Part shown: in pieces, positions 10,222 to 21,097 of the stretch | Layout of the letters: the number at the start of each line of letters is the position of its first letter | How positions within the stretch are numbered: the first letter of the stretch is position 1 | Origin: Labrenzia sp. OB1 | GTDB taxonomy: Bacteria; Pseudomonadota; Alphaproteobacteria; Rhizobiales; Stappiaceae | Assembly (NCBI RefSeq): GCF_001624695.1 | Contig: NZ_JSEP01000007.1 | Coordinates: forward strand, 124,001 to 188,000 | Direction of reading: 5' to 3' | DNA length: 64,000 bases | Translations under genes and position numbers: made by a program | The notes under the pieces: model-generated | Seen by the model: the letters and a program-made list of their open reading frames with translations, nothing else | The model's database searches: none | Told to the model about the DNA's origin: nothing

Positions 10222-11183
10222 TTTCCAAACACCTCCAGCCGGTTCCTGACCCGCAATACGCCCGCGCCGCCAATTGCGATGGCCCCGGCCAGGATCAGCC
10301 CTTCGATGAAAGGTTGCGCCAGCGGAGGCAAGCCGGAAAAGAACATCAGGGAGCCGATGGTTTTCAGAATAAACGCACCAGCCATCGCACCTGTCAGCGT
10401 GCCGACGCCGCCGCGCAGTGCAACGCCGCCCAAGACGACCGCGGCGATGGAATTCAGCGTGTAGTTGGGGCCGATCCCAGCGTCCCCCGTTGTCGTTACA
10501 AAGCTGAAATAGAGGCCGGCTAGACCCGCGAACAAACCACCCATCGCGAATGAGACAAGCCGGATCACCGGCACGGGCATTCCTGATTGAAATGCAGCCT
10601 GTTCAGAGGAACCGACGGCATACAACCCAAGACCCAGACCCGTCCGGCGCAAAGGCACCCAGAAAAGAACGATCACCGCGGCAGCGATGATCAGCGCCGT
10701 CGGAATGCCAAAGACATCCAGCGTGAACGCATCGGCCAGGTCATAATCGATCCGGCCGCCCGGAGTGGGCCGCAGCAGCAATGCCAGACCAACAAACAAG
10801 GATGCCGTTGCAAGTGTCGCCACGATCGGTTGAATGCGGCCAAACACAACAACTGCGCCGTTGAAGAGCCCGCAGGCCACACCAACGGCGAGCACCGCCG
10901 CAATCCCAAGGGCCATGTCGAGACCGGAACCGATCACGAAATAGGAGGCGACGCAATTCGTCAGCGCCATGACTGCGCCAACGGACAGATCAATGCCCCG
11001 CACAATCACCGCGAAGAACTGGGCAATCGCTGCCAAGGCAAGGATCAGGCATTGGTTGGCCCAGATCGTGATTACATAGGTATTGGGCCCGCTGGGATGG
11101 CTTGCAAGGTATAACGTGAGCAAGACAGCAAGCACCAGAATGGCGATCGCTTCTCGTTGATTGGACCTGAGCAGATTACCCAT
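10218..11183 (-). CDS. Sugar ABC transporter permease (RbsC/BPD_transp_2 family)
   Basis: A 321-residue polytopic permease with VIVRGIDLSVGAVMALTNC and AAVVLGGVALRGGVGTLTG, the two hallmark loops of ribose/xylose-type permeases. It overlaps the ATPase gene by 8 bp upstream and the second permease by 4 bp downstream. With its partner it should form the inner-membrane channel of the importer served by the binding protein encoded upstream. Confidence 0.88.
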   Translation of the reverse strand: MGNLLRSNQREAIAILVLAVLLTLYLASHPSGPNTYVITIWANQCLILALAAIAQFFAVIVRGIDLSVGAVMALTNCVASYFVIGSGLDMALGIAAVLAVGVACGLFNGAVVVFGRIQPIVATLATASLFVGLALLLRPTPGGRIDYDLADAFTLDVFGIPTALIIAAAVIVLFWVPLRRTGLGLGLYAVGSSEQAAFQSGMPVPVIRLVSFAMGGLFAGLAGLYFSFVTTTGDAGIGPNYTLNSIAAVVLGGVALRGGVGTLTGAMAGAFILKTIGSLMFFSGLPPLAQPFIEGLILAGAIAIGGAGVLRVRNRLEVFGK

Positions 11184-12702
11184 TGGCGGCCTCTGAGGTT
11201 TGCGCAGGAAGGGGGATGTTCAGGGAAGCTGCAATGATCGCCTCGGCTGTGACGTCATTTCCTGTCAGGTGACGAACGATACGCCCCTGATAGAAAATAT
11301 GCGCTTCATCGCAAAGGTGGATCAGCTCTTCATAGTCGGTTGAGACGAGCAGGATCGCGACACCGCTGTCGGCCAACCGCCGCAGCAGCGCATATATCTG
11401 TGTCTTGGTTTTGACGTCGATCCCGCGTGTCGGATCGGCCAACAGCATGCAGCGGGGACCGAGGGCAAGCCATTTCGTCAGAGCCACCTTTTGCTGGTTT
11501 CCGCCGGACAACTCGCCGACCGGCTGATCCAGACTGCGACATTTCAATTCAAGAGCATCCAGAAACGGCTGATAGATCGTGACATCCGACGCATCAATTC
11601 CGTCCGTACCAAGCGCGGCCAGTTCCAGATTTCGGGCGATACTCTGTTGCAGTATGAGCCCTTCGGTCTTGCGATCTTCCGGTACGAGGGCAATGCCCAG
11701 TTTGGGATTCTTGGCCTGTTTGGGGTGGGTGATCGTAACCGGGATGCCACCCACGACGCAGCGTCCCTCCGTTCCCTTGAGAAGACCGAACAAGCCTTGC
11801 AATACGCTGCCTTGCCCTTGCCCATCCAGGCCGCCAAGTCCCGTAATCTGTCCCTTGCGCAAAACGATAGAGATATCACGCAGTTTGTCTGTCCAGCTGA
11901 AACCGTCGACGCGCAGCACCTCTTCCGCGTCCGGGTTCGCCGGTGGCTTTGGCGGGAACAGGTCATCAATGCGCTGTCCGACCATCTTGCTGATTATTGC
12001 GCTGTAGTCGTAGGCACCATTGTCGAAAGTTTCGACATGCGCACCGTTTCGAAAGATGGAGATACGGTCGGCAAGGGATTCGATCTCGTGAAACCGATGC
12101 GAAATGAACAATACACCGACGCCCCGATCCCGTTCCGCACGAATGAGCCGGAACACTTTCTCGACGACAGAGGCATTCAGGGCGGACGTCGCTTCATCCA
12201 GGATCAGCAGCTTGGGATTGCGGGTCAGGGCTTTGGCGATTTCAACCTGTTGTCTTTCCGCCAAGGACAGATCGGCCACGCGCGTTTTCATTCCGATCGC
12301 ACCGCCATCTATCTGTGCCAGTATGTCCTGCGCGCTCCGCACCACGCTCGCATTCAGCCTCCCGAGCCCGGTTCCGACCGCGCCCAGCATCAGGTTTTCA
12401 CGCACGCTCAGATCGGGAACCAAAGACAGTTCCTGAAACATGCAGACAAGCCCGCGCACCATTGCATCGGCCGGGCTGGTCAGCCGGGTGACCGCGTTGT
12501 TGACCTCGATATCTCCGGATGTCGGCTGAATGACGCCTGCCAACAGTTTCATCAGTGTTGATTTGCCGGCACCGTTCTCGCCCAGCACTGCGTGGATTTC
12601 ACCGCCGAAACACGAGAAATCTACATCGGACAATGCCTGGGTCGTGCCATAGATTTTAGAGACGCCGCGAAGGCGCGCAATCGGGTGTTCAGATCGAGAC
12701 AT
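11176..12702 (-). CDS. Sugar ABC transporter ATP-binding protein (RbsA/MglA type)
   Basis: 508 residues with two fused ABC ATPase domains. The first has Walker A GENGAGKS and signature LSLAERQQ; its Walker B is LLILDEATSA. The second has LSGGNQQK and a degenerate Walker A region (GLDGQGQGS), the normal asymmetry of RbsA/MglA/XylG proteins. I chose the ATG giving MSRSEHPIARLRG; an in-frame start 63 bp upstream would add a non-family extension. It energises uptake of the sugar bound by the upstream periplasmic protein. Confidence 0.88.
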   Translation of the reverse strand: MSRSEHPIARLRGVSKIYGTTQALSDVDFSCFGGEIHAVLGENGAGKSTLMKLLAGVIQPTSGDIEVNNAVTRLTSPADAMVRGLVCMFQELSLVPDLSVRENLMLGAVGTGLGRLNASVVRSAQDILAQIDGGAIGMKTRVADLSLAERQQVEIAKALTRNPKLLILDEATSALNASVVEKVFRLIRAERDRGVGVLFISHRFHEIESLADRISIFRNGAHVETFDNGAYDYSAIISKMVGQRIDDLFPPKPPANPDAEEVLRVDGFSWTDKLRDISIVLRKGQITGLGGLDGQGQGSVLQGLFGLLKGTEGRCVVGGIPVTITHPKQAKNPKLGIALVPEDRKTEGLILQQSIARNLELAALGTDGIDASDVTIYQPFLDALELKCRSLDQPVGELSGGNQQKVALTKWLALGPRCMLLADPTRGIDVKTKTQIYALLRRLADSGVAILLVSTDYEELIHLCDEAHIFYQGRIVRHLTGNDVTAEAIIAASLNIPLPAQTSEAANG

Positions 12703-12770
12703 TACAGGCCGTCCGCTGTCAAAAGGAGCGTTCCGGCAGCGCGATGCCGCCGGAACCGATTTCACCGCGA

Positions 12771-13850
12771 TCAGGTGTTGTCAGCGGTTTGGCCAAGCAG
12801 CTCTTCCGGGGTGAAGGGCGCAAAGCAATCAGGGAAACCTGTGCCTGTATTGAAAGACTTCGGCAGGTCCGGGAAGTAATTCACACCCGCTTCAAGGTCT
12901 TCTGCTTTCACCTGCGGAATCGGCAGATAAACAGTTTGCGGCAGTTCGTTGCCCTGAAGCAATGCGACGGCGGCTTCCAGCGCGACGGCGGACATGGCAG
13001 GTGCCTGGGATGCGGAGATGCCGGGGATATCGAGCTCGTCCATAAGCATGCGAACACCATTCTCGCCGTCCACTCCCATAGGCACAATCGGATGTTCAGC
13101 GGCCTGCATTGCGTTGATCGTTCCCGCGGCTCCGTGCTGAGAGACGACACCATCAAATTGGCCATGCGTCGCCAGCGCATCTGCGACGACTTTCTGGCTC
13201 GTGCCGGTATCCCAGTTGCCAACGACCTCGACAATTTCAAGGCCCTCGACATTTTCAAGCACACTCATCATGCCAACACGGCGATCACGATCTGTGGCAT
13301 TGCCGGGCAAACCGTTCACCATCAGGATCTTGTCGGCGGTTCCGCCGAGTTCATCCATCACGGTTTGCGCTTTGAGACGGCCCAGTTCCAGCTGGCTTTC
13401 ATTGATCTGCACGACCTGATCCGTGTCCAGAACATTGTCGAACGGAACAAGGACAGTGCCCTGGCGTGCCGCCCTGCGGATCACCGGCTCAAATGCGCTC
13501 GGGTTCACGGCGATGAACGTGATGGCATCGTAGCCCGCAGCGATGAAGTTATCGATTGCCGCTATTTGCGCCGCGCTGTCATTGCCCACTGATACGACCG
13601 TGAATTCTTCAATATTTGCAGCGTTTTCAGGACGTGCGGCCCAGGCTTTCGATGCCTGGATGGCCGCGATACGCCAGTCGTTTCCGGCAAAACCGTTCAC
13701 AAACGCCATTTTGTAAGGCCCCTCTTTGGCCTCACCTTGAATTGTTGTGCTTTCCGGCGCAGGCGCGAAGCACTCTGCACGGTAGGTTTCCGCGGATGCA
13801 TGTGAAACGACAAACATCGCCAACGCGGTTCCCAGCATGAGATTTTTCAT
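12771..13850 (-). CDS. Periplasmic sugar-binding protein (ribose-type, PBP1 fold)
   Basis: 359 residues from an ATG preceded by AGGAAA. A signal peptide ends near SHASA/ET. The mature protein has the type-1 periplasmic-binding fold: YKMAFVNGFAGNDWR, VSVGNDSAAQIAAIDNFIAAGYD, DKILMVNGLPGNATDRDR and VPMGVDGENG. It is the first gene of the five-gene operon (binding protein, ATPase, two permeases, lactonase), transcribed from a promoter region with two LacI-type operators. The gluconolactonase suggests an aldose or its lactone as ligand; the precise sugar cannot be read from the sequence. Confidence 0.88.
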   Translation of the reverse strand: MKNLMLGTALAMFVVSHASAETYRAECFAPAPESTTIQGEAKEGPYKMAFVNGFAGNDWRIAAIQASKAWAARPENAANIEEFTVVSVGNDSAAQIAAIDNFIAAGYDAITFIAVNPSAFEPVIRRAARQGTVLVPFDNVLDTDQVVQINESQLELGRLKAQTVMDELGGTADKILMVNGLPGNATDRDRRVGMMSVLENVEGLEIVEVVGNWDTGTSQKVVADALATHGQFDGVVSQHGAAGTINAMQAAEHPIVPMGVDGENGVRMLMDELDIPGISASQAPAMSAVALEAAVALLQGNELPQTVYLPIPQVKAEDLEAGVNYFPDLPKSFNTGTGFPDCFAPFTPEELLGQTADNT

Positions 13851-13883
13851 TCGATTTCCTCCCAGAGTTTGATAATTCGTCAC

Positions 13884-13899
13884 ATGTTTACGTAAACAT
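13884..13899. promoter_or_regulatory. LacI-type operator O1
   Basis: A perfect 16-bp palindrome, ATGTTTACGTAAACAT, with the central CG typical of LacI/GalR-family operators. It lies 34 bp upstream of the binding-protein start codon, where it would block transcription of the sugar operon. Confidence 0.8.
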
Positions 13900-13911
13900 A
13901 TGGCGCATCAA

Positions 13912-13931
13912 ACATGTTTACGTAAACATGT
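13912..13931. promoter_or_regulatory. LacI-type operator O2
   Basis: A perfect 20-bp palindrome, ACATGTTTACGTAAACATGT, containing the same 16-bp core as O1 and centred 30 bp from it. The spacing puts both sites on one face of the helix. It is the nearer site to lacI, so autoregulation is likely. Confidence 0.8.
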
Positions 13932-13982
13932 GTCAAGTGATTCTGTTAAATGCATCTGATTATTTACGAATGGAGACCGGAG

Positions 13983-14999
13983 TTGGCGGACCGAAAAGCA
14001 GCGCGCCCCACGATGGATGATGTCGCTGACCGCGCGGGCGTAAGCCAGATGACAGTCTCGCGGGTGATGAGCGGAAAGGGCTATATCTCAAGCAAGGTGC
14101 GCGATCAGGTCCATGCTGCAGCCGCGGAAATCGGCTATGTTCAAAACCGGTTGGCGCGTGGGTTACGCTCCGAGCAATCCTCCCTGATCGCAGTCGTGCT
14201 TCCCACACTTGGCAATACTGTTTTCACGGAGGTGTTGCGCGGCATCACCGACGCCCTGTCAGCGCAAAGTCTGCGCCCGGTGTTTGGTTTGACTGAATAT
14301 TCGGAAGACCGGGAATATGAATTGGTGCGCGATTTGCTGTCGTGGCGTCCTGCGGGCATTGTGCTGGCCGGGCTGGAACATTCTGACCAGACCAGACGTG
14401 CAATCGATGCGTCTGGCGTGCGGGTTGCCGAAGTCATGGATATTGACGGCGAACCTATTTCGACGGCGTTCGGACTGTCGCAGAAAGCCGCGGGACAGGT
14501 CACGGCACAACATATGCTGGACAAGGGCCACCGTCGCTTCGTTTACGCGGGCAGCCAAAGCGGCGCCGATCTGAGGGCGGGTAAACGCCTTGAGGGTTTC
14601 CGGCAGACCGTTCGCGAAGCGGGCGGAACAATCGTGTCCGAAATCATCAGTTCGCAGCCTTCCTCCATGGTTGAAGGGCGGCGGATAACAGCGGAGATCC
14701 TGTCCGGCGGCGACCGCCCGGACGCGATTTACTACTCCAATGATGATCTGGCGGCGGGTGGGATCATGCATTGCCTGGCCGAAGGAGTAAGAATCCCCGG
14801 TGACATTGCTATGGCCGGCTTTAATGGATTGCCATACCTTGATGCCTTGCCGATCCAACTGACGACAATACAAACTCCGCGCTACGATATCGGTTTTCAG
14901 GCTGGAAAGCTCTTGGCGATGCAAGGCGAAGATCGTTCAAGCACCGCGTCGCAATTGGTCGATCTGGGGTTTGAGTTGAGCGTCGGAAGAACCTGTTGA
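13983..14999 (+). CDS. LacI-family transcriptional repressor of the sugar ABC operon
   Basis: 338 residues from a TTG start preceded by GGAG at 7 bp; an in-frame ATG at 13950 lacks a ribosome binding site and would add 11 residues. The HTH reads TMDDVADRAGVSQMTVSRVM, with the hinge helix near NRLARGLRS. The rest is a PBP1-fold ligand domain (IAVVLPTLGNTVFTEVLRGI, YYSNDDLAAGGIMHCLAEG). It is divergent from the sugar ABC operon with two palindromic operators between them, so local repression relieved by the imported sugar or a derivative is the obvious inference. Confidence 0.9.
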   Translation: MADRKAARPTMDDVADRAGVSQMTVSRVMSGKGYISSKVRDQVHAAAAEIGYVQNRLARGLRSEQSSLIAVVLPTLGNTVFTEVLRGITDALSAQSLRPVFGLTEYSEDREYELVRDLLSWRPAGIVLAGLEHSDQTRRAIDASGVRVAEVMDIDGEPISTAFGLSQKAAGQVTAQHMLDKGHRRFVYAGSQSGADLRAGKRLEGFRQTVREAGGTIVSEIISSQPSSMVEGRRITAEILSGGDRPDAIYYSNDDLAAGGIMHCLAEGVRIPGDIAMAGFNGLPYLDALPIQLTTIQTPRYDIGFQAGKLLAMQGEDRSSTASQLVDLGFELSVGRTC

Positions 15000-15046: not shown

Positions 15047-15535
15047 TCAGGACCAGAAGTCGGCCTGAAGCTGCGCAGCCTCATCCTCCAGAAGCGGGCC
15101 GACCACCTCAACCTGCCTCTGGCCCGCGGCGAAGACGGTGCGGCAGGGCAGGTCCAGTGTCGGGTTCTCGTCGTGATCGCCTGTCTGTTCCTTGAGCGAT
15201 TTTTCCGTCTGGCCGAAGACGACGCGGCCGATGCCGGACCAGTAGACGGCGCCCGAGCACATGGCGCAGGGCTCCGCCGAGGTGTACATGGTGCAACCGG
15301 CGAGAAAATCTGGACGCCATTGCTTGCTGGCGCGGGTGGCGAGCAGACGTTCCGCATGGGCCGTCATGTCCTGCCCCTCGGCGGTATAGCCGTTTCCCTG
15401 CTCCATCAGGATTTCTCCGTCGGGCCCGGCCAGAAGGCAGCCGAACGGATGGTCGCCGGTCTCCCTGGCCATGGCCGCGATCTCGAACGCCCTGCGCAAC
15501 AGCGCGATGTCCCTGTCTTCCCGCGTAGCGCTCAC
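15047..15535 (-). CDS. Nucleoside/nucleobase deaminase (CMP/dCMP deaminase fold)
   Basis: A 162-residue zinc-dependent deaminase. Zinc ligands and the catalytic Glu are visible: His60-Ala-Glu62, and Pro89-Cys90-x-x-Cys93 (SAEPCAMCSGAVYWSGIGRVVFG). The sequence resembles guanine-deaminase (GuaD-like) and tRNA-adenosine-deaminase-like members; the tail (DLPCRTVFAAGQRQVEVVGPL) fits the small-molecule nucleobase branch. It diverges from the purine transporter operon with the xanthine riboswitch between, so guanine or a related base is the best guess for substrate. The cytoplasmic reaction would release ammonia and xanthine. The in-frame alternative start cannot be excluded. Confidence 0.8.
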   Translation of the reverse strand: MSATREDRDIALLRRAFEIAAMARETGDHPFGCLLAGPDGEILMEQGNGYTAEGQDMTAHAERLLATRASKQWRPDFLAGCTMYTSAEPCAMCSGAVYWSGIGRVVFGQTEKSLKEQTGDHDENPTLDLPCRTVFAAGQRQVEVVGPLLEDEAAQLQADFWS

Positions 15536-15712: not shown

Positions 15713-15718
15713 TTGACA
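15713..15718 (+). promoter_or_regulatory. Candidate -35 element upstream of the riboswitch
   Basis: A TTGACA hexamer begins about 35 bp before the 5' side of the riboswitch. The matching -10 region is poor, so the promoter call is tentative, but it would start transcripts almost exactly at the aptamer. Confidence 0.4.
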
Positions 15719-15743
15719 TAAACACTCCCTTGATCTTCCGTCA

Positions 15744-15787
15744 GGGAGAGTAGAAGCGGTAGAGCCTTTGGCTTTGACATTGCTCAT
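15744..15787 (+). ncRNA. Xanthine riboswitch (NMT1 motif), candidate
   Basis: The leader of the purine transporter operon contains GAG-TAGAAGCG, a 6-bp hairpin (AGAGCC-TTT-GGCTTT, 15761-15775) and GACATTG-CTC. This order (P1 strand, TAGAAGCG internal loop, variable P2 hairpin, A-rich ATTG strand, P1 strand) matches the NMT1 motif as I remember it, an RNA class shown to bind xanthine and uric acid and named for its frequent position before NMT1-like transporter genes. The downstream gene here is such a transporter. The aptamer ends about 140 bp before the first start codon, further than usual for direct masking of the ribosome binding site. The call is from memory of the consensus, not from a covariance search. 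Confidence 0.72.
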
Positions 15788-15927
15788 CTTTGTTAGCTGA
15801 TCAATGCGGCCCCGGGAACGTTCGGGACATGCCTTGCCGATAATGGGATGACGATGGTGAAAGGCAGGAAATCAAGCTCCCGCGTCTTGCCACTTTTCCA
15901 GATGAACAACAGCGAAAGGATGTGCTG

Positions 15928-16938
15928 ATGCGCATGTTTGACGGGAAGATTTTATGCGTTGCCCTGACTTCGGTCGCGGCCGCGTTTACGGCTTCGGGAA
16001 CCGCCTCCGCAGCCGACCTGGTAACCTATCAGCTCGACTGGCTGCCGGGCGGCGACAAGGCACCGATCTATGTTTGCGTCCAGGAAGGCTTCTGCGAGGA
16101 AGCAGGCCTGGAGATCAAGATCGAGCCGGGCCGCGGTTCGTCGGAAGCCATCACCAAGCTGGCGACCGGCACGTCCGATATCGGCTCGGCCGGGCTGGGT
16201 GCGCTGATGGCTGCAAGAGCGACGGAGGGCGTCCCGGCGACCGCCGTCATGTCCATCTTCAACATGGGCCCGCACGCTTTCTACACGACCGCCGACACGG
16301 GCATCGCATCCATCAAGGACGTCAAGGGCAAGAAGATCGCCACTTCCCCCTTCACGTCCTCCAACGTCTTCCTGCCGCTGGTGCTCGCCGACAACGGGTT
16401 TTCGGAAGCCGATATCACCCTGACCAAATCCGATCCGGGCGCGCTCGGCCCGCTGCTGATGACCGGCCAGTCCGATGCCATCATCGCCTGGCTGACGGAT
16501 GTGTCCCGTTACACCGGCCAGGCCAAGGAAGCCGGCAAGGAACTGGTCGTCCTGCCCTGGGCCGATGCGGGCCTGGAGCTTTATTCAGCAGCGCTCGTCG
16601 CCAGCGACACCTTCCTTACCGAACGTCCGGAGGTGGCGAAACGTTTCGTCGCCGCGTTCAAGAAATCGCTCGAATTCGCCTATGAGAACCCGGACAAGGC
16701 GGCAGCGGCCGTTGCTGCCATGGTGCCGGAACTTTCGGCCGAAGACGTCAAGGGCTCCTGGCTCGACGCGTCCAAGCTGGCCTTCAACGAAGTAACGGAA
16801 ACCTATGGCCTCGGCGCACTGGATGCGGACCGGCTGCAAGCCACCTGGGAACGGGTTGCCGCGTCCCAGGATCTGGATCCGGCTTCGCTGCAGCCTGAGG
16901 ACGTTGTCGACCGGTCCTTCATGCCGGCGTCGGAGTGA
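15928..16938 (+). CDS. NMT1/THI5-like ABC substrate-binding protein, probable purine ligand
   Basis: 336 residues from the ATG 7 bp after AAAGGA; an upstream GTG adds two residues. A signal peptide ends near ASA/ADL, followed by an SsuA/THI5/TauA-type binding fold (YQLDWLPGGDKAPIYVCVQEGFCEEAGL, GSSEAITKLATGTSDIGSAG, IKDVKGKKIATSPFTSSNVF). This family carries thiamine precursors, taurine, nitrate and oxidised purines or pyrimidines. The candidate xanthine riboswitch upstream and the deaminases around it point to a purine. It is the first gene of an ABC operon with ATPase and permease 6 bp and about 0.8 kb downstream. Confidence 0.85.
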   Translation: MRMFDGKILCVALTSVAAAFTASGTASAADLVTYQLDWLPGGDKAPIYVCVQEGFCEEAGLEIKIEPGRGSSEAITKLATGTSDIGSAGLGALMAARATEGVPATAVMSIFNMGPHAFYTTADTGIASIKDVKGKKIATSPFTSSNVFLPLVLADNGFSEADITLTKSDPGALGPLLMTGQSDAIIAWLTDVSRYTGQAKEAGKELVVLPWADAGLELYSAALVASDTFLTERPEVAKRFVAAFKKSLEFAYENPDKAAAAVAAMVPELSAEDVKGSWLDASKLAFNEVTETYGLGALDADRLQATWERVAASQDLDPASLQPEDVVDRSFMPASE

Positions 16939-16944
16939 CGCCCC

Positions 16945-17724
16945 GTGGCGCTTGCAGGTAACGCGATCAACTTCTCCGGTGTCGGTCAGACTTTTCTGAC
17001 CGGCACCGGCTCCCTGACGGCTCTCGACGGTGTTTCCGTCACCATTGCCCAGCATGAGTTCGTCGCCGTGCTCGGGCCGTCAGGATGCGGCAAGTCAACC
17101 TTGCTGCGGCTGACCGCGGGTCTGATGAAACCCTCCACCGGCAGCGTGAGCGTCTTTGGCCTTCCGGTGACGCAGCCGCGCGACGATGTCGGCATCGTCT
17201 TCCAGAAGCCGACGCTGCTTCCCTGGGCGAATGTGGAGGACAATGTGGTGTTTCCCGCCAGGCACAAGCTGGGCCGGGTCACCCCCGAGGACCGCGCGCA
17301 GGCGCAGGCGATCATTGAGACGGTCGGGCTGGCCGGGTTTGAAAAACGCCTGCCCTCGGAACTTTCCGGCGGAATGCAGCAGCGGGTGGGGATTGCCCGG
17401 GCGCTGTTCCTCAACCCGGACATCCTGCTCATGGACGAGCCGTTTTCCGCACTGGACGCCCTGACCCGCGACATGATGGGTTTCGAGCTTCTGCGCCTGT
17501 GGCAGGCCAGCCCCAAGACGGTGCTGTTCATCACCCATTCCATTCCCGAAGCGGCCCTTCTGGCGGACCGGGTGCTGGTGCTCAGCGAGCGCCCCGGACG
17601 GGTGATCGCCGACCTGCCGGTGCCGACATCGCGCCCCCGGGACGAAACCTCGCTCGGCTCACCGGAGATGCAGGACTATGCAGCGCATCTGCGTTCGCTC
17701 CTGATCCGAAAGGAAGCCGCCTGA
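16945..17724 (+). CDS. ABC transporter ATP-binding protein (SsuB/TauB/ThiZ type)
   Basis: 259 residues from a GTG start 6 bp after the binding-protein stop. Walker [11 protein letters not shown]-loop [14 protein letters not shown], signature [15 protein letters not shown], Walker [13 protein letters not shown] and the H-loop (FITHSI) are all present. This ATPase subfamily pairs with NMT1-type binding proteins. Its stop overlaps the permease start by one base (TGATG). Confidence 0.9.
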
Positions 17725-18581
17725 TGACGGCCGCAGACACACCGGACACGTCCGCCGCGAAAACACCCAAGCCGGTGACGGCAGCGCCCTCGGCAAAGAC
17801 AGTTCCCTTGAAGGAGCGTCTGCTGCGCACGCCGGTGGCGCTGCCGCTGATGACTTTCCTGCTGTTGCTGATTCTATGGGAAGCAGGCACCCGGCTCTTC
17901 TCGGTGCCGTCCTATATCCTGCCATCTCCCTCACGCATCCTGCTGGGCTTCGAAGCCGTGCCGCCAGGGCGCTGGGTGGAGCATATCTGGGCGACGCTGC
18001 GCGTGGCGCTGCTGGGCTATCTGGTCTCCTTCGTGGTCTCCCTGCCGATCGCTGTCGGGCTGGCGAAGTCCCGGCTGCTGTCGGGCGCACTCTATCCGCT
18101 GCTTGTGGTGATCCAGTCCGTGCCGGTGGTTGCCGTCGCGCCGATCATCATCGTGGTGCTCGGCACGGGCGATGCGCCACGAGTGGTCATAACCTTCATG
18201 ATCTCCTTCTTTCCGCTGGTCGTTTCCATGACCACGGGTCTCGCGGCGACACCGCCGGAGCTGATCGAACTGTCGCGCTCGCTGCGCGCGCCGTCCCTTC
18301 GGGAGATCACCCAGATCCGGCTGCCCTATGCGACGCCTTACATCTTTTCCGGCATGAAGATCTCCATCACCCTGGCGGTCATCGGCGCGGTGGTGTCCGA
18401 ATTCGTGGCGGCGGAAAAAGGCATCGGCTATTTCATCCAGTTCTCGACCTCCATGTTCAAACTGCCGCAGGCCTGGGCCGGTCTGGTGATCCTGGTGGCG
18501 ATGTCGCTCCTGCTGTTTCAGGTCGTCAGCCAGACCCAGCGGATCTTCTTCCCGTGGTCTCTGCCGAAGGGGCAGAAATGA
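17724..18581 (+). CDS. ABC transporter permease (SsuC/TauC type)
   Basis: 285 residues with about six transmembrane helices and the EAA-type coupling loop (ELSRSLRAPSLREITQIRLP). A 35-residue Ala/Pro/Lys-rich cytoplasmic N-terminus precedes the first helix. It completes the three-part importer and overlaps the amidohydrolase start by four bases (ATGA), so uptake and deamination are translationally linked. Confidence 0.9.
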   Translation: MTAADTPDTSAAKTPKPVTAAPSAKTVPLKERLLRTPVALPLMTFLLLLILWEAGTRLFSVPSYILPSPSRILLGFEAVPPGRWVEHIWATLRVALLGYLVSFVVSLPIAVGLAKSRLLSGALYPLLVVIQSVPVVAVAPIIIVVLGTGDAPRVVITFMISFFPLVVSMTTGLAATPPELIELSRSLRAPSLREITQIRLPYATPYIFSGMKISITLAVIGAVVSEFVAAEKGIGYFIQFSTSMFKLPQAWAGLVILVAMSLLLFQVVSQTQRIFFPWSLPKGQK

Positions 18582-19981
18582 CGTCTTTCCTGATTACCGG
18601 CATCGACTACGGACTTACCGGCAATCGGGAGGGGGAGCGTTTCAGCGGCGCGCTGCGGGTGCGCGACGGCATGATCAGCGAGATGGGTGCGCTTCTGCCG
18701 TTCTCCGGAGAAGAGACCGTCGATGCCGGCGGCTGCGCGGTGACGCCCGGACTGGTGAACAGCCATCATCATCTCTTCCAGTCGATCCTCAAGGCGGTGC
18801 CCGAAGGGCTGAACGCCCCGCTCGACGACTGGCTGATGCATGTGCCTTACAGTTACTGGCCGCTGATCGACGAGGAAGCCCTGAGAGTGGCCGCGCGGAT
18901 CGGACTGGCCGAGCTTTTGCTCACCGGCGCAACGACGGTCTGCGATCATCACTACGTCTTCTCCGGCCGTTACGAGTACGACCCCGCCGATATCCTGTTC
19001 GAGGAAGCAGGCGCTCTCGGTCTCCGTTTCGTGCTGGCGCGCGGCGGTGGCACGAAGGGGCGCTCCTTTGCGGATACGGCCCTGCCTCCGGCACCGACCG
19101 AAACACTGGACGCATTTCTGGCCTCCATCGAGCGGACCGCCGACCGCTGGCATGACCCCTCCCCCGGTTCCCTGCGCCGGGTCGCGGTGGCGCCGACGAC
19201 ACCCACCTTTAACGTCGAGCCCGGCGAGCTGAAGGACATTGCCGGTTTCGCCCGCGCCAAGGGCCTGCGGCTGCATTCGCATCTTTCCGAAAACCGCGCC
19301 TATGTGAATTTCACGCTTCGGAGCTACGGCAAGCGGCCGGTGCACTGGCTGGCGGAACAGGACTGGCTGGGGCCGGATGTCTGGTTCGCGCATCTGGTTG
19401 AATGCGATCCGGCCGAAGTGGCGCTGCTTGCGGAAACCGGAACGGGCATGGCCCATTGCCCGCAGGCCAATGCGCGGCTCGGCTCCGGCATCGCGCCCGC
19501 CGACGCGCTGCATGACGCGGGCGGGATTGTTTCTCTTGCAGTCGACGGGGCCGGGGCGAACGAGGCGGCGGATATGGGCGCGGCGCTCTACAGCGCCTTT
19601 GCGCTTCACCGGGCCGCCAAGGGCGTTCAAGCCGCCCGCGCGGAAACGCTGCTGAACTGGGCAACGGAGGGTGGAGCCGGGATGCTCGGCTTCGACGGTT
19701 TGGGAATTCTGGCGCCAGGGATGGCTGCGGATATCACCCTCTTCGACTTGAGTGCCCCGCGTAATCTGGGTCTGCACGATCCGGCCCTGGCACCGGTTCT
19801 GACCGGGGCCGCCACCGTGAAGCACAGTTTCGTCGGCGGCCGGCAGGTTGTGAAGGACGGGCGGATACCGGGTCTCGATCTTGCGGCGCTTGCCGAAGAT
19901 GCCGTCCGGATCACACGTGGCATCATCGAACGAAGAAAGGAGATGACGGCGTCCACCGGGGCCCGCGCCGCCCATGCCTGA
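18578..19981 (+). CDS. Amidohydrolase, 8-oxoguanine deaminase / hydroxyatrazine hydrolase type
   Basis: A 467-residue metal-dependent amidohydrolase with a TIM barrel. The metal site includes NSHHHLFQS (replacing the commoner HxH form), HSHLSE, HLVECD and DGAGANEAADMG. The H-H-H form of the first motif and GLVNSHHHLFQSI are typical of 8-oxoguanine deaminases and the related hydroxydechloroatrazine hydrolases. 8-Oxoguanine deamination gives uric acid, itself a reported ligand of the NMT1 riboswitch class, which would close a feedback loop with the element upstream. Substrate assignment is inference. Stop-start coupling to the permease argues it acts on the imported compound. Confidence 0.8.
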   Translation: MTSFLITGIDYGLTGNREGERFSGALRVRDGMISEMGALLPFSGEETVDAGGCAVTPGLVNSHHHLFQSILKAVPEGLNAPLDDWLMHVPYSYWPLIDEEALRVAARIGLAELLLTGATTVCDHHYVFSGRYEYDPADILFEEAGALGLRFVLARGGGTKGRSFADTALPPAPTETLDAFLASIERTADRWHDPSPGSLRRVAVAPTTPTFNVEPGELKDIAGFARAKGLRLHSHLSENRAYVNFTLRSYGKRPVHWLAEQDWLGPDVWFAHLVECDPAEVALLAETGTGMAHCPQANARLGSGIAPADALHDAGGIVSLAVDGAGANEAADMGAALYSAFALHRAAKGVQAARAETLLNWATEGGAGMLGFDGLGILAPGMAADITLFDLSAPRNLGLHDPALAPVLTGAATVKHSFVGGRQVVKDGRIPGLDLAALAEDAVRITRGIIERRKEMTASTGARAAHA

Positions 19982-20098
19982 TGGGCCTGAAAGACTGGCC
20001 TGAATTGCCGGTGAAACCGGTATGTGGAGTATAAGCTGGCAGTGCCGCCGCGGCACGGGTCATTGCTCCGGGAAACCTTTTTTGAGGAGAACGGAAAT

Positions 20099-21097
20099 AT
20101 GAGCACCTCTACATCATACGGCCTTGCCGAACTGGAGAAGGAAAAGAACTTCGGCGGCGAAGGCGAACTCGTCGATCGCGACATCCCGCGGATCGACATG
20201 TCGGACTATTTCTCACGCAAGGCGGAAATCACCGAAGAGCTGTGGGAAGCAGCCACCGGGATAGGCTTCTTCCAGCTTGCCAATCACGGAATTCCCCAGG
20301 CGTTGATCGACGAGGCCTTTCGCCTCTCGGCCGGTTTTTTCAGCCTGCCTGCGGAGACGAAGGAAAAATTCCCGCTCAAACCCGGTTCGAACGCCGGCTG
20401 GGAATTCAAGGCTCAGGTGCGCCCGTCCACCGGTACGGCGGACCAGAAGGAAAGCTATCAGATCACCCTGCCCCGCATGACCGGCCTCTGGCCGTCCGGA
20501 GAGGAAGTCACGGGCTTCAAGGCGACCATGCTGGCCTTCGAGCGCCACAACTGGGCGCTGGCGATGAAAGTACTCTCCTGCTTCGCGGACAAACTCGACT
20601 TTCCGCCGGATTTCTTCACAGATGGCCATGATCCGCTGACGCCGGAGTATCAGTCCACCCTGCGGCTGATCCACTATCTGGGCATGGAGGACGCCAAGCC
20701 GGAGGACTTCAAGTTCTGGCGCGCCGGAGCTCACACGGACTTCGACTGTCTCACGCTGCTGCACCAGAAGGCAGGGCAAGGCGGATTGCAGCTCTGCCCT
20801 GGCAAGGACAGCCAGGGCCGCGCCATCGCCTGGACCGACGTGCCGCCGCTGGAAAGGGTGATCACCTGCAATATCGGCGACATGCTGATGCGCTGGTCCG
20901 ACGACAAGCTGCTGTCCAACCTGCACCGGGTGCGCATGCCCAAGCCGGAGGAATATCTCGGTCCCCGCTATTCCATGGCGTTTTTCGCGCAGGCCAACAT
21001 GGATACGGTGCTTGCCGGTCCGGAAGGCAAATACGAACCGATGACGGCGCATGACTACATCCAGATGCGCCTCGGTGCGAATTTCGGCAAGAAATAA
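20099..21097 (+). CDS. 2-oxoglutarate/Fe(II) dioxygenase, isopenicillin-N-synthase family
   Basis: 332 residues from an ATG preceded by GAGGAGA. The N-terminal DIOX_N segment (IPRIDMSDYF, GFFQLANHGIP) is followed by the jelly-roll core with iron ligands His212-x-Asp214 and His276, and the 2-oxoglutarate-binding R290-Y-S292. All catalytic residues are therefore present. It follows the amidohydrolase by about 120 bp and is co-directional with the purine operon, so it may hydroxylate or demethylate a purine or its degradation product. The family is very broad (ethylene-forming, antibiotic and hormone oxygenases), and I cannot name the substrate. Confidence 0.82.
   Translation: MSTSTSYGLAELEKEKNFGGEGELVDRDIPRIDMSDYFSRKAEITEELWEAATGIGFFQLANHGIPQALIDEAFRLSAGFFSLPAETKEKFPLKPGSNAGWEFKAQVRPSTGTADQKESYQITLPRMTGLWPSGEEVTGFKATMLAFERHNWALAMKVLSCFADKLDFPPDFFTDGHDPLTPEYQSTLRLIHYLGMEDAKPEDFKFWRAGAHTDFDCLTLLHQKAGQGGLQLCPGKDSQGRAIAWTDVPPLERVITCNIGDMLMRWSDDKLLSNLHRVRMPKPEEYLGPRYSMAFFAQANMDTVLAGPEGKYEPMTAHDYIQMRLGANFGKK

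What the first reader, a model, noticed from the sequence alone, without database searches (positions are those of the whole stretch)
15744..21097. Candidate xanthine (NMT1) riboswitch controlling a transporter-deaminase-oxygenase operon
The leader shows the NMT1 order: P1 strand, TAGAAGCG, 6-bp P2 hairpin, ACATTG, P1 strand. Downstream is an NMT1-type ABC importer coupled by stop-start overlaps to an 8-oxoguanine-deaminase-like amidohydrolase. Uric acid, the product of 8-oxoguanine deamination, is a reported ligand of this RNA class, so product feedback is possible. The aptamer sits about 140 nt before the start codon, so regulation may not be simple ribosome-site masking.
Basis: partly seen in the sequence, partly recalled or inferred. 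Interest (0 to 1): 0.72.

Follow-up and report, generated by a model that had tools for sequence, protein, structure and literature searches.

The report
Two xanthine riboswitches in one operon
A bacterial gene cluster for taking up and breaking down purines carries two RNA sensors for xanthine or uric acid, one at its start and a stronger match in front of its last gene; comparison across bacteria suggests that the second one may switch its gene on rather than off.

Summary
The aptamer at 15743-15790 is real and of the xanthine-I (NMT1, RF03054) class, but scores 31.5 bits, below the family cut-off of 36; its P2a/J2 region is contracted. In the genus, 10 of 45 genomes have the family, each with exactly two copies, flanking the transporter genes in 9 of the 10; the pair recurs in other alphaproteobacterial families. 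Gene types are those published for the class; the deaminase is PRK12393, not the 8-oxoguanine-deaminase equivalog. Main new point: in copies close to the oxygenase the outermost P1 pair is G-C, so the 3' P1 strand reads CUCC, complementary to the oxygenase Shine-Dalgarno GGAG (34 of 34 proximal copies, 0 of 70 others; held-out 14 of 14 against 0 of 18). Folding predicts that P1 formation exposes the Shine-Dalgarno in many relatives, an ON switch, opposite to the published OFF reporter; the window's own copy leans the other way. Four loci carry true tandem copies in one leader, although a 2022 survey lists xanthine-I as not found in tandem. Ligand, sign and function in this organism are untested.

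The parts
15713..15718 (+). TTGACA box upstream of the leader aptamer, possible -35; no consensus -10 found
   Evidence: CTTGACA in 8 of 8 aligned genus leaders; the consensus scan found no sigma-70 promoter
   Evidence: RF03054 31.5 bits, below the cut-off of 36; 8 genus leaders
15786..15927 (+). 142-nt leader between aptamer and start codon, mechanism unknown; carries AUCUUU next to P1, which can pair with the Shine-Dalgarno GAAAGGAU at 15913-15920
   Evidence: inference
15928..16938 (+). NMT1/THI5-like ABC substrate-binding protein
   Evidence: PF09084 139.6 bits
16945..17724 (+). ABC transporter ATPase (GTG start assumed)
   Evidence: PF00005
17724..18581 (+). ABC transporter permease, start overlaps the ATPase stop by 1 nt
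   Evidence: PF00528
18578..19981 (+). amidohydrolase of the PRK12393 family (guanine/8-oxoguanine-deaminase-like)
   Evidence: NF009059 591 bits, cut-off 543; nearest solved relative 2paj
20022..20073 (+). internal xanthine-I aptamer; P1 GGAG 20026-20029 pairs with CUCC 20066-20069; substitutions U7 and U12
   Evidence: RF03054 46.5 bits, over the cut-off
20084..20089 (+). Shine-Dalgarno GAGGAG of the oxygenase, complementary to CUCC of P1
20099..21097 (+). 2-oxoglutarate/Fe(II) oxygenase (DIOX_N + 2OG-FeII_Oxy)
   Evidence: PF14226, PF03171; nearest solved relative thymine dioxygenase 5c3p

Best explanation
The operon is governed by two separate xanthine/uric-acid-sensing RNAs of the xanthine-I class. 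Shown by sequence: a contracted aptamer stands upstream of the importer and deaminase genes, and a second aptamer stands just before the oxygenase. Inferred: each binds xanthine (or urate) through the unchanged G10/U40 clamp and the C11-G35-A39 triple of the class. The leader copy sets expression of importer and deaminase through a 142-nt platform whose mechanism is unknown. The internal copy sets translation of the oxygenase alone, because the 3' strand of its P1 (CUCC) can pair either with the 5' strand GGAG (ligand-bound) or with the oxygenase Shine-Dalgarno GGAG (ligand-free). In many relatives this predicts that ligand turns the oxygenase on; in the window itself the sign is not settled.
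For: Two RF03054 copies in the window and no other credible one in the genome. 10 of 45 genus genomes have the family, each with two copies. Among 18 mapped relatives 18 have an aptamer directly before the oxygenase and 12 also one before the transporter. First P1 pair G-C in 34 of 34 oxygenase-proximal copies and 0 of 70 others; held-out 14 of 14 against 0 of 18. GGAG in the Shine-Dalgarno region of 34 of 34 against 37 of 70. P1 formation raises Shine-Dalgarno accessibility in 19, lowers it in 2, flat in 13 of 34; held-out 10 up, 0 down, 3 flat of 13. Exchanging the pair to C-G lowers the mean gain from 0.22 to 0.05, shuffled linkers give 0.09.
Against: The window's own internal copy is one of the two in which accessibility falls (0.49 to 0.31). 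The one published reporter of the class, a Hydrogenophaga transporter-type leader, reads as OFF (PMC7373994), and the model does not reproduce OFF for near transporter copies (3 up, 1 down, 6 flat of 10). The duplex swap test is not significant for the oxygenase set (0.13). The copies are related by descent, so the counts are not independent. No ligand binding was tested. The leader misses the Rfam cut-off.
Confidence: 0.6

Rival explanations
1. Both aptamers are ordinary OFF switches as published: accumulating xanthine or urate represses import, deamination and oxidation at two checkpoints of one operon, and the G-C pair is a lineage habit of the oxygenase copy.
For: Published OFF reporter (PMC7373994). 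In the window the modelled Shine-Dalgarno accessibility falls on P1 formation at both copies: leader 0.43 to 0.08, internal 0.49 to 0.31. A local hairpin of CUUUU with GAGGAG can mask the oxygenase Shine-Dalgarno while P1 is formed.
Against: G-C in 48 of 48 proximal copies with no C-G among them, and 0 of 88 elsewhere, is not expected from P1 stability alone. Folding of relatives points to ON. For genus leaders the model disagrees: 3 of 7 rise, 4 fall.
Confidence: 0.38
2. The two aptamers recognise different ligands, for example one xanthine and the other urate or another oxidised purine; the internal copy has drifted.
For: Oxygenase-linked copies differ in the core: U at position 37 in 27 of 34 proximal and 10 of 17 distant oxygenase copies against 0 of 53 others; position 12 is G in 51 of 52 transporter or deaminase copies but 5 of 34 proximal oxygenase copies. 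The window copy has U7 and U12.
Against: In the crystal structure the base contacts to xanthine are from G10 and U40 (PMC8266621), unchanged in both window copies. G12A costs only 7-fold in affinity, so a changed threshold is a simpler reading.
Confidence: 0.1
3. The leader copy is a decayed remnant and only the internal copy is a working riboswitch.
For: It lacks C15-G36, A16, C33 and C34 and scores below the cut-off; in G053 and G169 the transporter stands without a leader aptamer in the stretch read.
Against: Eight genus leaders keep an identical J1 core and pair in 99% of cells with a compensatory change in P2; a decaying element would not.
Confidence: 0.08

Closest known systems
Xanthine-I riboswitch (NMT1 motif, Rfam RF03054)
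   Same: P1, J1 core UAGAAGC, P2, 3' core CAUUGCUC; gene types (NMT1-like binding protein, PRK12393 amidohydrolase, pcbC-like oxygenase, tadA-like deaminase) as listed in PMC7373994
   Different: two copies in one operon; leader with contracted P2a/J2 below the cut-off; oxygenase copies with an anti-Shine-Dalgarno P1 strand and predicted ON sign, while the published reporter reads OFF
Adjacent divergent NMT1 motifs of Hydrogenophaga intermedia S1 (PMC7373994)
   Same: two copies of the class near one another, serving transporter, pcbC and tadA genes
   Different: there in opposing orientations; here on one strand about 4.2 kb apart with four genes between them
Tandem riboswitches for one ligand (pseudo-cooperative), reviewed in PMC9481103 (passages seen)
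   Same: two sensors of one class in one transcript
   Different: in the window they lie in different intergenic regions and can control different genes; only G003, L120, L134 and L184 are tandem in one leader
Xanthine-II riboswitch (guanine-riboswitch variant, PMC9295807, passages seen)
   Same: senses xanthine; its authors read its architecture as ON
   Different: unrelated three-stem-junction fold; no sequence relation claimed

Membership tests
Xanthine-I (RF03054), internal copy 20022-20073 | score at or above the Rfam gathering cut-off of 36 bits | tested here: met
   46.5 bits
Xanthine-I (RF03054), internal copy 20022-20073 | P1, P2a, P2b and J1 core with G10, C11, G35, A39, U40 | tested here: met
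   read; departures U7 and U12; 14-37 is a G-U wobble
Xanthine-I (RF03054), leader copy 15743-15790 | score at or above the Rfam gathering cut-off of 36 bits | tested here: not met
   31.5 bits; E=1.2e-4 genome-wide for this family; so filed as a contracted variant, not as a regular member
Xanthine-I (RF03054), leader copy 15743-15790 | J1 core UAGAAGCG and ACAUUG, P1 and P2 | tested here: met
Xanthine-I (RF03054), leader copy 15743-15790 | J2 with A16, C33, C34 and the C15-G36 pair | tested here: not met
   absent; one bulged G (15776) remains
Xanthine-I riboswitch | binds xanthine and uric acid | not testable with these tools
   needs in-line probing or ITC
Xanthine-I riboswitch | OFF control of translation | tested here: inconclusive
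   folding only: relatives mostly ON-like or flat at the oxygenase, window copies lean OFF
Tandem riboswitch (same 5' leader, gap of at most 300 nt, as in PMC9481103) | both aptamers in one untranslated leader | tested here: not met
   window copies about 4.2 kb apart with genes between; met in G003, L120, L134, L184
8-oxoguanine deaminase (PRK08203) for 18578-19981 | curated equivalog cut-off of 532 bits | tested here: not met
   399.1 bits
PRK12393 amidohydrolase for 18578-19981 | curated cut-off of 543 bits | tested here: met
   591.1 bits
tRNA adenosine deaminase TadA for 15047-15535 | curated equivalog cut-off of 150 bits | tested here: not met
   55.7 bits

The most novel reading that the evidence does not exclude
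The oxygenase-proximal xanthine-I aptamers form a distinct ON-switch subtype in which the 3' strand of P1 is itself the anti-Shine-Dalgarno, so that one metabolite acts through two sensors of one class in one operon: it induces the oxygenase while separately setting, possibly repressing, import and deamination.
Probability: 0.42. Interest if true: 0.72.

Novelty: new variant of a known kind. Interest (0 to 1): 0.55.

Why it matters
The paper that validated the class reported OFF control, noted that genes for degrading oxidised purines were missing from its associations, and argued that activating members would be expected if toxicity were the concern (PMC7373994). A sequence rule that separates oxygenase copies from transporter and deaminase copies, and that predicts the opposite logic, makes this testable with one reporter and one base-pair exchange. 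It also adds natural tandem xanthine-I pairs, listed as not found in a 2022 survey (PMC9481103), and a contracted form that the current Rfam cut-off misses.

Tried and rejected
Anti-aptamer idea: the invariant GCUCCCGC of genus leaders is complementary to GCGG and GAGC of the aptamer, and several leaders fold that way. Against dinucleotide shuffles only 3 of 34 transporter-linked copies tested reach 0.05 (mean z -0.31), so it is not claimed.

Small upstream reading frame in the leader: a candidate ATG frame runs into the binding-protein gene in one relative but ends in TGA in the window (read by eye); dropped.

Intrinsic terminator or consensus sigma-70 promoter at the leader: 0 found of either. 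Promoter before the internal aptamer: 0 found; a sigma-54-like site stands upstream of 1 of 34 oxygenase-proximal copies.

Swap test of the duplex between P1 3' region and Shine-Dalgarno region: 0.0015 for 11 deaminase copies, 0.016 for 39 transporter copies, 0.13 for 40 oxygenase copies within 110 nt, 0.89 for 11 farther ones. For the oxygenase set it has little power because almost all sites read GGAG.

Position 39 and most of the J1 core cannot be scored for conservation, because the search pattern itself fixed them.

A paper search for a 2-oxoglutarate purine oxygenase showed nothing relevant among the 12 listed. Searches on the class and on two riboswitches in one operon showed no report of a two-copy xanthine-I operon; the supplements of PMC7373994 were not readable here, so this does not prove absence.
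Full report
CHECK. Rfam's xanthine model finds it at 15743-15790 with 31.5 bits, below the curated 36, so the default scan omits it. It is not chance: E is 1.2e-4 for that model over the whole 6.0-Mb genome, and the same element precedes the same gene in relatives. These two are the only credible copies in the genome; three further hits have E of 1.8 to 5.8.

CONTEXT. The genes are an NMT1/THI5-like binding protein, ATPase and permease, a PRK12393 amidohydrolase and a 2-oxoglutarate/Fe(II) oxygenase. The best sequence match of the oxygenase among solved structures is thymine dioxygenase; that of the amidohydrolase is a putative cytosine/guanine deaminase. These gene types are already listed for the RNA class in PMC7373994 (parts 1-4 of 5 read). 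The genome has a xanthine dehydrogenase subunit B (1188 bits, cut-off 849.5) and no match to urate oxidase TIGR03383 (other urate-oxidising families were not searched), so which purine step the oxygenase performs is open. The host is probably a Stappiaceae bacterium: two same-genus genomes have contigs of exactly the length of named records (Rhodobacterales bacterium BW5, Stappia sp. BW2), and a same-family one matches Pseudovibrio flavus; this is inference.

CONSERVATION. 10 of 45 genomes of the genus (the window's own included) carry the family, each with exactly two copies. In the family it is 12 of 87, in the order sample 12 of 397, in the class sample 4 of 385, 2 of them over the cut-off, and in the phylum sample 17 of 398. 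These larger searches used stricter filters that lose weak copies. In the 18 relatives mapped, an aptamer lies directly before the oxygenase in 18 and before the transporter in 12. One (G003) has lost transporter and deaminase but kept both aptamers. G053 and G169 have the transporter but no leader copy was found in the stretch read. G392, G217 and G152 showed only the oxygenase copy. In the family of G268, 13 of 247 genomes hit, 12 of them with two copies.

LEADER VARIANT. In crystal numbering (PMC8266621, parts 1-4 of 7 read) the window leader keeps U5, A6, G7, A8, A9, G10, C11, G12, A39, U40, U41 and G42 but lacks the C15-G36 pair, A16, C33 and C34; one bulged G remains that could take the role of G35. 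Eight genus leaders share this form; 99% of cells pair, the first P2b pair being A-U in four rows, G-C in three and unpaired in one; 8 of 500 shuffles reach the observed covariation score, but the counts of double-changed pairs and pair types do not exceed the shuffles. That the contraction is sterically possible is my inference from the published stacking order and was not modelled. Among the 80 loci that I examined, of 120 fetched by a scan that stopped at its limit, this form with a purine-pyrimidine first pair and a GAG/CTC P1 was seen only in L104, a genome of the same genus.

OXYGENASE RULE. In 204 loci 122 aptamers were found by a core pattern; 104 had an assignable downstream gene, start and Shine-Dalgarno. 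Eighteen were dropped for lack of one, among them L129, which has the G-C pair but no assigned gene. The outermost P1 pair is G-C in 34 of 34 copies within 80 nt of an oxygenase start, in 0 of 17 farther ones and in 0 of 53 before other genes, 20 of which are also within 80 nt. The 80-nt limit was set after seeing the data. Families searched afterwards gave 32 new aptamers from 40 loci (two loci had no pattern hit): 14 of 14 proximal oxygenase copies have G-C, 0 of 18 others. CUCC is complementary to GGAG, present in the Shine-Dalgarno region of 34 of 34 proximal copies against 37 of 70 others.

SIGN. Forcing P1 and an open J1, against the free ensemble, raises Shine-Dalgarno accessibility in 19, lowers it in 2 and leaves 13 of 34 flat, mean 0.20 to 0.42. 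On held-out copies it is 10 up, 0 down, 3 flat of 13; one of the 14 had no recognised site. Exchanging the pair to C-G reduces the mean gain from 0.22 to 0.05, and shuffled linkers give 0.09. This supports ligand-ON. Against it: the window copy itself falls (0.49 to 0.31), as does L033; deaminase copies, without the G-C pair, also rise (9 up, 2 down, 2 flat of 13); near transporter copies mostly do not change (3 up, 1 down, 6 flat of 10), so the model does not reproduce the one published OFF result, whose exact leader I did not have; and the copies are related by descent. For the genus leaders the model disagrees among genomes: 3 of 7 rise and 4 fall, the window from 0.43 to 0.08.

CORE DIFFERENCES. 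Position 37 is U in 27 of 34 proximal and 10 of 17 distant oxygenase copies and in 0 of 53 others. Position 12 is G in 51 of 52 transporter or deaminase copies and in 5 of 34 proximal oxygenase copies. G12A lowers xanthine affinity 7-fold in vitro (PMC8266621), so the two sensors may have different thresholds. I saw no measurement of the window's U7 and U12.

TANDEMS. Four loci carry two aptamers in one leader with gaps of 117 to 292 nt and no closed reading frame over 13 codons in the gap; in each the first lacks and the second has the G-C pair. A survey of tandem riboswitches lists xanthine-I among the classes not found in tandem and excluded gaps over 300 nt (PMC9481103, passages seen).

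VERDICT. Known class, known gene types. The two-sensor layout on one strand, the contracted leader form and the oxygenase-specific P1 rule appear new within what I could search. The sign of the internal switch is the open and testable point.

Noticed in passing
upstream of transporter-leader aptamers in relatives, e.g. L027, L029, L038, L110, L135: A sigma-54-like site (TGGCAC-N5-TGC type) lies within 60 nt upstream of 18 of 39 transporter-linked aptamers against 1 of 34 oxygenase-proximal ones, suggesting nitrogen control of the operon; the window's genus has CTTGACA there instead (8 of 8).
   Followed up: partly
L033 (G003), L120, L134, L184: Two xanthine-I aptamers in one leader before the oxygenase, gaps of 292, 117, 169 and 138 nt.
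   Followed up: partly
window 15047-15535 (-): Divergent cytidine-deaminase-fold protein next to the leader; below the TadA cut-off, with CMP/dCMP, tRNA-adenosine and guanine deaminases among its matches to solved structures; in two relatives it lies on the operon strand.
   Followed up: partly
window 20008-20020 (+): A short perfect hairpin CCGGTGAAACCGG directly before the internal aptamer, without a T run.
   Followed up: no
window 20022-20029 with the first codons of the oxygenase: In the free fold of the window copy the P1 5' strand AUGUGGAG pairs with CUCUACAU in the oxygenase coding region; a possible competing helix.
   Followed up: no
window 11176-14999: ABC ATPase and periplasmic sugar-binding-type protein on the minus strand with a LacI-type regulator on the plus strand; a neighbouring cluster, relation to the operon unknown.
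   Followed up: no
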